Below are positions 4,530-6,189 of a stretch of DNA of 52,833 nt, piece after piece. The DNA comes from Pedobacter schmidteae (GTDB lineage: Bacteria > Bacteroidota > Bacteroidia > Sphingobacteriales > Sphingobacteriaceae): assembly GCA_945901155.1 (NCBI GenBank), contig CAMDKO010000007.1:1-52833 (forward strand), written 5' to 3'. Position 1 is the stretch's first letter, and each line of letters starts with the position of its first letter. The notes below the pieces were generated by a model, which was not told the DNA's origin, made no database searches, and saw only the letters and a list, made by a program, of their open reading frames with translations. The translations under genes and the position numbers were made by a program.

Positions 4530-4634
4530 ATTTATACAGAAGTGGCGAGAGATCAGGCTCTATGACCCACTGACAACCCCCCGATCGGTTTCGGGGAAGG
4601 TGCCAATTCCTGTCCCGAAAGGGAAACTATAAAT
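4530..4634 (+). promoter_or_regulatory. SAM riboswitch (SAM-I / S-box type)
   Basis: P1 can form between ATTTATA (4530-4536) and TATAAAT (4628-4634). Inside it, AGTGG pairs with CCACT around the segment CGAGAGATCAGGCTCTATGA, which is the S-box P2/kink-turn arrangement. It is followed by GACAACC, a P3 stem CCCCGA/TCGGGG, the conserved GGTGCCAATTCC core, and a P4 stem TCCC-GAAA-GGGA. Order and core sequences match the SAM-I family. It lies 250 nt upstream of metY, and the 3' strand of P1 ends 10 nt before the ATG of the 42-codon leader ORF. By family, SAM binding stabilises P1 and lowers expression. No clear intrinsic terminator directly follows P1, so control may act on translation or through the downstream leader. 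Confidence 0.85.
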
Positions 4635-4644
4635 ACATATTGAA

Positions 4645-4773
4645 ATGAAAAAACAAAAACCTGCAGTTTCTGTATTTCCCCAAGCGGAAATAAAAACCAA
4701 ATTCCAAAACTTTTCTTGGTCATCATCTACATTCAACTATTGTATGTGCATGCCTTGTTGGTATTGTTGTTAA
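4645..4773 (+). CDS. Cys/Met-rich leader peptide between SAM riboswitch and metY
   Basis: This 42-codon ORF starts at ATG 4645, just after riboswitch P1, and stops at TAA 4771-4773. The N-terminal half begins MKKQKPAVSVFPQAEIK. The last ten residues are CMCMPCWYCC, with five Cys, two Met, one Trp and one Tyr. This density of one amino-acid pair at the end of a short ORF, in front of a homocysteine-synthesis operon, is the hallmark of an attenuation leader whose ribosome stalls when charged tRNA is short. The stop codon overlaps the base of a long hairpin (4773-4813). I do not recognise a named family. Expression is not proven; the alternative is a chance ORF or a small metal-binding peptide. 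Confidence 0.65.
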   Translation: MKKQKPAVSVFPQAEIKTKFQNFSWSSSTFNYCMCMPCWYCC

Positions 4774-4813
4774 TTGTTAATTCAAGATAATTCTTGAATC
4801 CATTTTTAACAAT
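4773..4813 (+). promoter_or_regulatory. Imperfect hairpin following the leader ORF
   Basis: ATTGTTAA (4773-4780) pairs with TTAACAAT (4806-4813), and TTCAAGA (4781-4787) pairs with TCTTGAA (4792-4798) around a TAAT loop. A 7-nt bulge (4799-4805) interrupts the 3' side. It starts at the leader stop codon, so a ribosome paused on the terminal Cys codons would cover its base. Only a short T run lies in the bulge, so it is not a classical terminator. It may be one arm of an attenuator, or it may control translation. Confidence 0.5.
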
Positions 4814-4884
4814 GCCCTGCTGAGTTACTCTTAATTTCTATTCTTATAAACATTTATCAAAAAAATATCTAAAAACGTATTATC

Positions 4885-6189
4885 ATGTCAACACAAAACT
4901 TAAAATTTGAAACATTACAATTACATGCCGGACAGGAAGTAGATCCTACAACAGGTTCAAGAGCAGTACCTATTTATCAAACCACCTCTTACGTATTTAA
5001 AAGTTCTGAGCATGGAGCTAACCTTTTTGCTCTGAAAGAGTTCGGTAATATTTATACACGTTTAATGAATCCTACTACTGATGTGTTTGAGAAACGTATT
5101 GCTGCTCTTGAAGGCGGTGTTGCTGCTCTGGCAGTTTCATCAGGACAAGCTGCTCAATTTATTGCCTTAAATAATATTCTGCAGGCTGGTGATAATTTTG
5201 TTACTTCATCTTATTTGTATGGAGGTTCATACAATCAATTTAAAGTAGCATTCAAGCGACTTGGTATTGAGGCTCGTTTTGCAAAAGGTGATGATTCGCA
5301 AAGTATTGAATCATTAATCAATGAAAAAACTAAAGCTATATATGTTGAAACAATTGGTAACCCAAGCTTTAGTATTCCTGATTTTGAGAAAATCTCAGAA
5401 GTTGCCAAAAAGCATGATTTACCTCTGATTGTTGACAATACCTTTGGTGCTGCAGGTTATCTGTTCCGTCCTTTAGAACATGGTGCAAATGTTGTTGTTC
5501 AATCTGCTACAAAATGGATTGGTGGTCATGGAACTAGTATTGGTGGTGTGATTGTTGATGGTGGAAATTATAATTGGGGAAATGGTAAATTTTCTCAATT
5601 TACTGAGCCATCTGAAGGTTATCATGGATTGGTTTTCAATAGTGTCTTTGGAATTGGTGGTCCTTTTGGAAATATTCAATTCATCATCCGCGCACGTGTT
5701 GAAGGATTACGTGATTTTGGACCTTCTCAGTCGCCATTCAATTCATTCCTTTTGTTACAGGGAATAGAAACGCTGTCTCTTAGAGTTCAGCGTCATGTAG
5801 ATAATGCTTTAGAACTTGCAAAATGGCTTGAAAGTCATCCTCAGGTTGATAAGGTTGTTTATCCTGGATTAAGCAGTAGTCCTAATCATGCTTTGGCCAA
5901 GAAATATTTAAAAAATGGCTTTGGAGCTGTCCTATCTTTTGAGATCAAAGGCGGCAAAGATGCAGCAATTAAGTTTGTAGATAATTTAAAACTAATCAGT
6001 CATCTGGCAAACGTAGGCGATACTAAAACCTTAATCATTCAGCCAAGCGCTACTACTCATCAGCAATTAAGTGATGCAGAACAAATTGCAGCAGGTGTTA
6101 ATCCATCATCTTTAAGAGTATCAGTTGGTATTGAGCATATTGATGATATTAAGTCAGATCTTGAACAAGCATTTGCTTCTGTAAAATAA
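4885..6189 (+). CDS. metY: O-acetylhomoserine sulfhydrylase MetY
   Basis: The 434-residue protein is the long form of the Cys/Met PLP family typical of O-acetylhomoserine aminocarboxypropyltransferase. It makes homocysteine directly from O-acetylhomoserine and sulfide. The N-terminus [20 protein letters not shown] and [15 protein letters not shown] are MetY signatures, and K210 in [16 protein letters not shown] is the PLP lysine. It is the first enzyme gene after the SAM riboswitch and leader ORF. metX, which makes its substrate, follows 56 nt later across a perfect hairpin. The ATG at 4885 lacks a Shine-Dalgarno, as is usual in Bacteroidota. Confidence 0.93.

What the first reader, a model, noticed from the sequence alone, without database searches (positions are those of the whole stretch)
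4530..4885. SAM riboswitch followed by a Cys/Met-rich leader ORF ahead of metY-metX-hom
A SAM-I-type riboswitch (4530-4634) ends 10 nt before a 42-codon ORF whose last ten residues are CMCMPCWYCC (five Cys, two Met), immediately upstream of the homocysteine operon. Attenuation leaders are known for Trp, His, Thr and Leu, and Cys-rich leaders are known in mycobacteria. I know of no described case in which a SAM riboswitch gates a Cys/Met leader. Seen: the order, the residues and the start 10 nt after P1. Inferred: the riboswitch controls leader translation, and stalling on Cys or Met codons sets expression of metY, giving two sulfur inputs (SAM pool and charged tRNA-Cys).
Basis: partly seen in the sequence, partly recalled or inferred. 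Interest (0 to 1): 0.87.

Follow-up and report, generated by a model that had tools for sequence, protein, structure and literature searches.

The report
SAM riboswitch feeding a cysteine/methionine-codon leader
Ahead of the genes that make homocysteine, many bacteria of the phylum Bacteroidota carry an RNA sensor for S-adenosylmethionine that ends a few bases before a tiny gene finishing in a run of cysteine and methionine codons, which looks like a two-input control switch for sulfur amino acids that we have not found described.

Summary
Confirmed and widespread. The window has a SAM-I aptamer (4529-4635), then, 9 nt later, a 42-codon ORF (4645-4773) ending CMCMPCWYCC, then metY-metX-hom. 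Of 190 metY loci, 159 distinct ones hold the aptamer core; 156 of these have an ORF starting 34-63 nt after the core, and 120 have at least 3 Cys in the last 12 residues (0.4 expected from shuffles). The N-terminus drifts; the Cys/Met end stays. SAM riboswitches before metH (0 of 56), nifS-like (0 of 11), CGS/MGL (0 of 7) and hom-first (0 of 4) genes lack it. Best reading: low SAM opens helix P1, whose strand covers the A-rich initiation element of the leader, and lets the leader be translated; ribosomes slowed at Cys/Met codons then change the RNA after the stop codon and let the operon be expressed. The leader and its SAM linkage are shown; gating, stalling and sign are inferred. At the window locus no terminator and in its genus no consensus structure was found, so the downstream step is open. 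Nine on-topic full-text searches listed no paper with this combination.

The parts
4445..4477 (+). candidate Bacteroidota-type promoter: TTTG at 4445-4448 and TATATTTG (TANNTTTG) at 4470-4477
   Evidence: read by eye from the sequence; the consensus is recalled, not tested; transcription start not known
4529..4635 (+). SAM-I (S-box) riboswitch aptamer
   Evidence: RF00162, 66.6 bits, E 2.1e-13, full length 1-108
4628..4635 (+). 3' strand of aptamer helix P1 (TATAAATA); covers positions -10 to -17 of the leader start, including the As at -12, -13 and -14
   Evidence: Rfam alignment and sequence
4645..4773 (+). leader ORF, 42 codons, MKKQKPAVSVFPQAEIKTKFQNFSWSSSTFNYCMCMPCWYCC
   Evidence: leader in the same place in 16 of 16 full metY loci of the genus, this one included
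4741..4770 (+). Cys/Met codon tract (last ten codons, 5 Cys and 2 Met)
   Evidence: composition over 156 leaders
4766..4813 (+). predicted helix of the last Cys codons plus stop (4766-4773) with 4806-4813, enclosing a hairpin 4780-4787/4792-4799; no U-tract after it
   Evidence: minimum-energy fold; helix not significant on its own (p about 0.15); no terminator-like site found
4885..6189 (+). metY, O-acetylhomoserine sulfhydrylase (homocysteine synthase)
   Evidence: TIGR01326 686 bits
6246..7307 (+). metX, homoserine O-acetyltransferase
   Evidence: TIGR01392 348 bits, below the curated cut-off of 500
7309..8508 (+). hom, homoserine dehydrogenase
   Evidence: NF004976 321 bits, above cut-off

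Best explanation
It is a composite cis-regulatory leader with two inputs. (1) A SAM-I aptamer: when SAM is plentiful, P1 closes; its 3' strand is positions -10 to -17 of the leader ORF, so the A-rich initiation element of this non-Shine-Dalgarno start is paired and the leader is not translated. When SAM is low, P1 opens and the leader is translated. (2) The leader ends in Cys and Met codons just before its stop. With scarce Cys-tRNA or Met-tRNA the ribosome pauses there, sits on the last codons and the first bases after the stop, and keeps the RNA that follows from folding into the structure (or being engaged by Rho) that would otherwise stop transcription; metY-metX-hom is then made. With ample Cys and Met the ribosome releases quickly, the post-stop structure forms and expression falls. 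Shown: aptamer, leader, its conservation, the SAM-leader linkage, the gene specificity, no terminator in the aptamer-leader gap. Inferred: SAM gating of leader translation, codon-specific stalling, and the sign (stalling switches the operon on).
For: Aptamer 66.6 bits; Rfam finds SAM in 37 of 40 named metY loci that I chose, most of them for having the motif. Leader ORF in 156 of 159 distinct SAM-linked metY loci; Cys fraction 0.356 in the last 12 residues against 0.017 before, Met 0.127 against 0.009; the other two frames of the same stretch give 0.121 and 0.019 Cys; shuffles 0.4 against 120 observed. In 23 non-overlapping close pairs, 201 Cys-codon comparisons (each pair read from both sides): 180 identical, 12 synonymous, 9 changed; pN/pS 0.43 in the last 12 codons, 0.66 before. 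Gap aptamer-ATG median 9 nt, range 6-15, in 31 of the 37 SAM-positive loci; six were left out. Terminator-like hairpins (dG -9 or lower) between aptamer and gene: 30 of 54 metH and 7 of 7 CGS/MGL loci, shuffles 2-4%; between aptamer and leader at metY 0 of 155, in about 60 nt. Leader starts have A at -12 to -14 in 71-73%, metY's own start in 56-83%; As at -3, -6, -12, -13 go with efficient initiation and structure with poor initiation in Flavobacterium johnsoniae (PMC6847099, passages). Post-stop 69 nt more structured than shuffles (mean z -1.67), the 69 nt before metY not (-0.15; 152 loci). Sphingobacterium-type leaders ending Arg-Met-Arg: a 6-nt arm beginning with the G of the stop codon pairs downstream in 18 of 19 (1.9 expected), with changes on both sides. 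Pedobacter-type: three helices, the first inside the Cys codons, the third with C-G/U-A exchanges at three pairs (23 sequences).
Against: No terminator-like site at the window locus; after the leader stop only 14% of 156 loci have one (4% in shuffles). RNAalifold finds no consensus structure at all in the own-genus alignment (13 sequences, energy 0.0) and next to none in the Mucilaginibacter- and Sphingobacterium-type ones (-0.9, -0.1). Pairing of the Cys end with downstream RNA is slightly below shuffles over the whole set (5.45 against 5.93 paired nt, p 0.02) and duplex energies are no better than those of the ORF middle. Longest helix near the stop: own genus 7.62 against 6.78 nt expected, no excess in Pedobacter-type or Hymenobacter/Pontibacter. 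NifS-linked SAM switches also lack terminators (0 of 11), so their absence is not special to leader loci. The 19 Sphingobacterium-type leaders were picked as the RMR-ending type; L021, L031, L095 and L232 of that group end otherwise with TAA, and L102 was left out. Algoriphagus loci L113, L115, L123, L140 (and class-sample loci L286, L311, L327) keep the aptamer without a Cys end; L111 has only CKC. cysE-cysM and the cystathionine beta-synthase gene of this genome have no such leader upstream. No expression, ribosome-profiling or binding data were available.
Confidence: 0.6

Rival explanations
1. Same parts, opposite sign: leader translation protects the nascent RNA from Rho, and slowing at Cys codons uncouples translation so that the operon is turned OFF when cysteine is scarce, sparing sulfide for cysteine synthase.
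For: No general intrinsic terminator; the genome has a cysE-cysM operon as a separate sulfide-to-cysteine route; Rho has been proposed for actinobacterial Cys leaders (PMC1262725, passages).
Against: Cys codons sit at the very end of the ORF, where a paused ribosome shields rather than exposes the RNA after the stop; in four TonB-receptor-linked leaders of the same kind the last Cys codon and stop form the 5' arm of a U-tracted hairpin (L006, L012, L016, L017, read by eye), which fits stall = ON.
Confidence: 0.2
2. The nascent Cys-rich end itself is the sensor (thiol, metal, sulfide or persulfide chemistry causing arrest) rather than tRNA charging.
For: Runs of up to nine Cys (L098); a nascent-chain copper sensor exists in another system (PMC9973294, title and abstract opening seen in search listings only).
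Against: Met is enriched with Cys in the same stretch, which charging explains and metal binding explains less well; the residues lie at the peptidyl-transferase end, hardly outside the ribosome; no fixed spacing motif by eye.
Confidence: 0.08
3. The constraint is on RNA, not peptide: UGY-rich sequence is a helix strand or protein site, and the ORF is incidental.
For: Arg CGN and Cys TGY appear in equivalent places in different clades; helices involve the ORF end in Pedobacter-type and the stop codon in Sphingobacterium-type leaders.
Against: Frame specificity (0.356 against 0.121 and 0.019), use of both TGT (392) and TGC (275), ATG and open frame in 156 of 159, lower pN/pS at the end, and no excess pairing of the Cys end across the set.
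Confidence: 0.07
4. The ORF encodes a small functional Cys-rich protein co-regulated with metY.
For: Conserved Cys end.
Against: Length 18-64 aa, no evident common N-terminus across genera by eye, no Pfam match for the window leader, and the Cys pattern itself varies from leader to leader.
Confidence: 0.03

Closest known systems
Poly-cysteine leader ORFs of Actinobacteria (PMC1262725, passages read; Canestrari et al. 2020, 10.1111/mmi.14498, seen only as cited, paper not held)
   Same: Short ORF with a Cys run close to its stop, before sulfur genes; no conserved terminator hairpin in Mycobacterium.
   Different: No riboswitch is mentioned there, genes are cys/cbs, and the mycobacterial ones are leaderless (from the title); here a SAM-I aptamer sits 9 nt before the start, Met codons are enriched too, and the host phylum does not use Shine-Dalgarno initiation.
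uORFC-8-2 before cysS in Rhodobacterales (PMC8632094, passages read)
   Same: uORF with tandem conserved Cys codons, proposed ribosome-mediated attenuation.
   Different: Has a U-run consistent with an intrinsic terminator and no riboswitch; different phylum and gene.
B12 riboswitch-controlled translated leader of ppe2 in Mycobacterium tuberculosis (PMC11260477, abstract, outline and section 20 read)
   Same: A riboswitch whose first target is a translated upstream ORF.
   Different: Other ligand; uORF overlaps the gene and works mainly by termination-reinitiation. Here 111 nt separate leader stop and metY.
SAM-I riboswitch of Xanthomonas sensing uncharged initiator tRNA (PMC7270179, abstract and outline read)
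   Same: SAM-I device before met genes with a second, tRNA-related input.
   Different: tRNA binds the expression platform directly and frees a Shine-Dalgarno sequence; no leader peptide in the abstract.
trp/his-type leader-peptide attenuators (recalled)
   Same: Codon-run leader ahead of a biosynthetic operon.
   Different: Codons at the very end of the ORF, no general intrinsic terminator/antiterminator pair found, and translation start next to a riboswitch.

Membership tests
SAM-I riboswitch (RF00162) | Covariance-model match above gathering score | tested here: met
   66.6 bits against 44.4
SAM-I riboswitch (RF00162) | SAM binding and SAM-dependent control | not testable with these tools
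   needs in-line probing or reporters
Leader-peptide attenuator (trp/his type) | Short conserved ORF upstream with codons of the amino acid that the operon serves | tested here: met
   sulfur amino acids
Leader-peptide attenuator (trp/his type) | Intrinsic terminator with mutually exclusive antiterminator | tested here: not met
   none at the window locus; no consensus fold in the genus; terminator-like in 14% of 156 loci, 4% in shuffles
Leader-peptide attenuator (trp/his type) | Ribosome stalling on the codons alters expression | not testable with these tools
   no expression data
Poly-Cys attenuators of mycobacteria | Cys run near the stop codon | tested here: met
   120 of 159 loci with at least 3 Cys in the last 12
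Poly-Cys attenuators of mycobacteria | Leaderless start | tested here: not met
   start lies behind a 107-nt aptamer
Poly-Cys attenuators of mycobacteria | Translation attenuation by pairing over the downstream ribosome site | tested here: inconclusive
   69 nt before metY are no more structured than shuffles (mean z -0.15, 152 loci)
Riboswitch-gated uORF (ppe2 type) | Riboswitch immediately before the uORF start | tested here: met
   gap median 9 nt, 31 loci
Riboswitch-gated uORF (ppe2 type) | uORF overlaps the gene, termination-reinitiation | tested here: not met
   111 nt between leader stop and metY start in the window

The most novel reading that the evidence does not exclude
A phylum-wide sulfur-budget processor in Bacteroidota: the closing helix of a SAM riboswitch is at the same time the initiation element of a leader peptide that reads charged tRNA-Cys and tRNA-Met, so that one RNA computes SAM AND cysteine/methionine status for homocysteine synthesis, and a two-terminator version of it does the same for TonB-dependent uptake genes.
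Probability: 0.5. Interest if true: 0.84.

Novelty: new variant of a known kind. Interest (0 to 1): 0.74.

Why it matters
Riboswitches and leader-peptide attenuators are usually treated as alternatives. Here they are fused in a fixed geometry over much of a phylum that lacks Shine-Dalgarno initiation, which offers an answer to how translational riboswitches can work there: by pairing the A-rich initiation element. It also gives a concrete, testable two-input logic for the branch point between methionine and cysteine, and points to a set of small ORFs that are easily overlooked.

Tried and rejected
Chance and microsatellite explanations: rejected by shuffles, frame specificity and mixed TGT/TGC use. 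'Every SAM riboswitch has it': rejected. That call rests on 159 loci: a motif search missed the aptamer in 26, three had no gene in the stretch (L273, L295, L344), 130 were classed. Under one strict rule: MetH 0 of 56, NifS-like 0 of 11, CGS/MGL 0 of 7, Hom-first 0 of 4, two other PLP genes 0 of 2, MetY 7 of 13, MetX 3 of 5, TonB-receptor cluster 9 of 11, others 1 of 21. MetY misses: L286, L311, L327 lack a Cys end; L021, L028, L031 have weaker Cys/Met/Arg ends. Three of the MetY hits (L032, L351, L359) are the same loci as L192, L202, L178 of the metY set. The 26 were then read by their search coordinates: 15 MetH, 6 CGS/MGL, 3 MetX-like at 25-28% identity, 1 MetY-like at 52%, 1 unclassified (L312); none has a Cys leader by eye.

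General pairing of the Cys codons with a downstream strand: tested twice, not supported for the whole set. Helix between the P1 3' strand and downstream RNA: mean z -0.27, little signal. A general Cys regulon: no small ORF with 3 or more Cys in its last 12 residues lies upstream of cysE-cysM or the cystathionine beta-synthase gene; one (29 aa, ending NCCSY) lies downstream of cysM. pN/pS on ten 42-codon leaders of the genus is uninformative (0.86 first five codons, 1.10 middle, 0.84 end), so close pairs were used. The metH terminator count (67% of 33) had lost loci through a slicing slip in my script; it was redone (30 of 54).

Dropped rows in the metY set: of 190 loci, 21 had no aptamer core within 900 nt, 4 lacked the metY motif, 6 were identical duplicates; 159 remained. 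Of the 21: 12 show neither core nor Cys leader (L064, L096, L104, L116, L121, L131, L134, L136, L143, L144, L146, L157); L094 and L109 have too little upstream sequence; L077, L103, L118 have both ahead of another ORF before metY; L105 has a leader and an Rfam aptamer that the motif missed; L141 has a Cys/Met leader without SAM match; L139 and L194 have a looser core, L194 with an ORF holding CAC and MPMRMR inside. Nine of the 119 family metY matches were not fetched for this set (three of them are L021, L028, L031). Where a locus had several candidate ORFs the one richest in Cys, Met and Arg was taken, which favours the composition figures slightly; the shuffle test applied a best-of rule to real and shuffled sequence alike.

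Full report
What is there. A SAM-I aptamer lies at 4529-4635 (66.6 bits). Nine nucleotides later a 42-codon ORF starts (4645-4773) and ends CMCMPCWYCC; 111 nt after its stop comes metY, then metX and hom. A promoter of Bacteroidota type is plausible at 4445-4477 (read by eye, consensus recalled).

Is it conserved? Of 20 genomes of the genus, 16 have a full metY (this one included); all 16 have the aptamer core and an ORF starting in the same place, 32-44 aa long, with Cys and usually Met near its end. A named set of 80 metY loci and further family loci gave 190 loci in all; 159 distinct ones hold the aptamer core, and 156 of these have an ATG ORF starting 34-63 nt after the core, median 38 aa. 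Six of 156 have neither two Cys in the last 12 nor an RM[RC] end: L095, L217 and four Algoriphagus loci.

Is it peptide, not RNA? Cys is 0.356 of the last 12 residues against 0.017 before; the other frames give 0.121 and 0.019; TGT and TGC are both used (392 and 275); shuffles give 0.4 loci with three or more Cys against 120. In 23 close pairs Cys codons are kept (180 same, 12 synonymous, 9 changed of 201, read from both sides), with pN/pS 0.43 at the end and 0.66 before. N-termini and lengths drift. This is the signature of a leader peptide. Met is enriched 14-fold as well, so the device probably reads both sulfur amino acids.

Which genes? Among SAM riboswitches sampled over the family and class (best-scoring and listed places, not a random draw), a strict rule finds Cys leaders before MetY (7 of 13), MetX-first operons (3 of 5) and a cluster of TonB-dependent receptors (9 of 11; one member, L006, checked by Pfam: Plug and CarboxypepD_reg domains), and in 1 of 21 others; none before MetH (0 of 56), NifS-like (0 of 11), CGS/MGL (0 of 7) or Hom (0 of 4). 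The 26 loci that the motif missed add no positive. The leader thus follows homocysteine formation and an uptake gene, not the riboswitch as such.

How the riboswitch acts. Between aptamer and gene a terminator-like hairpin stands in 30 of 54 metH and 7 of 7 CGS/MGL loci (shuffles 2% and 4%), but also in 0 of 11 NifS loci. Between aptamer and leader at metY it is 0 of 155, in a stretch of about 60 nt that leaves little room: the gap has a median of 9 nt (6-15, 31 loci with Rfam-defined ends). The 3' strand of P1 is therefore about -10 to -17 of the leader start. Leader starts have A at -12 to -14 in 71-73%, metY's own start in 56-83%. In Flavobacterium johnsoniae As at -3, -6, -12 and -13 are positive determinants of initiation and structure is a negative one (PMC6847099, passages). 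Closing P1 should thus silence the leader. This step is inferred. SAM-I P1 strands may be A-rich for other reasons, and in the window position -3 is G.

How the leader acts. The 69 nt after the leader stop are more structured than shuffles (mean z -1.67), the last 69 nt of the ORF less so (-1.08), the 69 nt before metY not (-0.15; 152 loci; windows overlap where the spacer is short), which speaks against masking of the metY start. Clades differ. In 19 Sphingobacterium-type leaders chosen as the RMR-ending kind, a 6-nt arm that begins with the last base of the stop codon pairs with a segment 27-64 nt downstream in 18 (1.9 expected from mononucleotide shuffles), with changes on both sides, for example GTCATT/AATGAC against GTCGTC/GACGAC; the stop is TAG in all 19, while four other leaders of the group (L021, L031, L095, L232) end otherwise with TAA. 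In 23 Pedobacter-type loci (L099 left out) three helices follow each other, the first inside the Cys codons, the third with C-G/U-A exchanges at three pairs. In four TonB-receptor loci (L006, L012, L016, L017) the last Cys codon and stop form the 5' arm of a U-tracted hairpin (read by eye; scored for L012 and L017). A ribosome held on the last codons would block these arms. At the window locus the predicted helix 4766-4773/4806-4813 is weak and has no U-tract, and RNAalifold gives no consensus structure for its genus, so Rho or a pause-based mechanism is possible. Against a uniform attenuator: pairing of the Cys end with downstream RNA is not above shuffles over the whole set.

Physiology. The genome also has cysE-cysM (cysE 162 bits, under its cut-off of 211; cysM above cut-off) and a cystathionine beta-synthase gene (TIGR01137, 490 bits, just under its cut-off of 510), and a cystathionine gamma-synthase/lyase-type gene just upstream (3267-4391; best NCBIfam model NF005871, 439 bits against a cut-off of 513). 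Homocysteine made by MetY can therefore probably feed both Met and Cys, and control by both end products makes sense; this is inference from pathway knowledge.

Novelty. Cys-codon leaders are known (PMC1262725, PMC8632094, passages; Canestrari 2020 only as cited), riboswitch-controlled uORFs are known (PMC11260477, abstract and one section), and a SAM-I switch with a tRNA input is known (PMC7270179, abstract). Nine full-text searches of the held open-access library bore on this (a tenth was about initiation). Judged by titles and abstract openings, no listed paper joins a SAM riboswitch to a Cys or Met leader; four of the lists were capped (20 of 105, 15 of 45, 15 of 82 and 15 of 44 shown), and most subscription papers are not held, so this is not proof of absence. 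Reports of attenuation leaders in flavobacteria and Bacteroides are general in the passages that I saw (PMC9723704, PMC7366714). I file it as a new variant of a known kind.

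Noticed in passing
L006, L012, L016, L017, L014, L020, L009, L350, L353: SAM riboswitches before TonB-dependent receptor genes are followed, roughly 100-250 nt later, by ORFs with ends such as FRMRMPC, FRMCMSC or MRCCC; some show a terminator-like hairpin soon after the aptamer and a second U-tracted hairpin at the leader stop, i.e. two stacked attenuators.
   Followed up: partly
L076, L086-L088, L093 and unnamed L205, L216, L218, L220, L222, L224, L225, L227, L228, L231, L233-L236 (Sphingobacterium-type): Leaders end CGA-ATG-CGN-TAG: Arg-Met-Arg replaces the Cys run, and the G of TAG belongs to a helix.
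   Followed up: partly
L141: A leader ending MCMCCMYMCM lies upstream of metY without any SAM riboswitch match, so the leader may exist alone.
   Followed up: no
L113, L115, L123, L140; class-sample loci L286, L311, L327: Algoriphagus metY loci (and three similar unnamed ones) keep the SAM aptamer but lack the Cys end, with a shorter distance from aptamer to metY.
   Followed up: partly
Pedobacter-type set (23 loci, e.g. L075, L208): A conserved three-helix element with AAAUCUUCC and GGAAGG motifs follows the leader; it might be a structured RNA in its own right.
   Followed up: partly
window 33629-33698 (-): Flavo-1 RNA match (RF01705, 53.4 bits).
   Followed up: no
L001 (own genome, second SAM riboswitch): The other SAM riboswitch of this genome precedes metH and has no Cys leader; it served as internal control.
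   Followed up: yes
L063: A MAG record titled Sphingobacterium thalpophilum carries the metY locus of this window's genus (93% identity; same upstream sequence as L039); the title is probably a misassignment.
   Followed up: no
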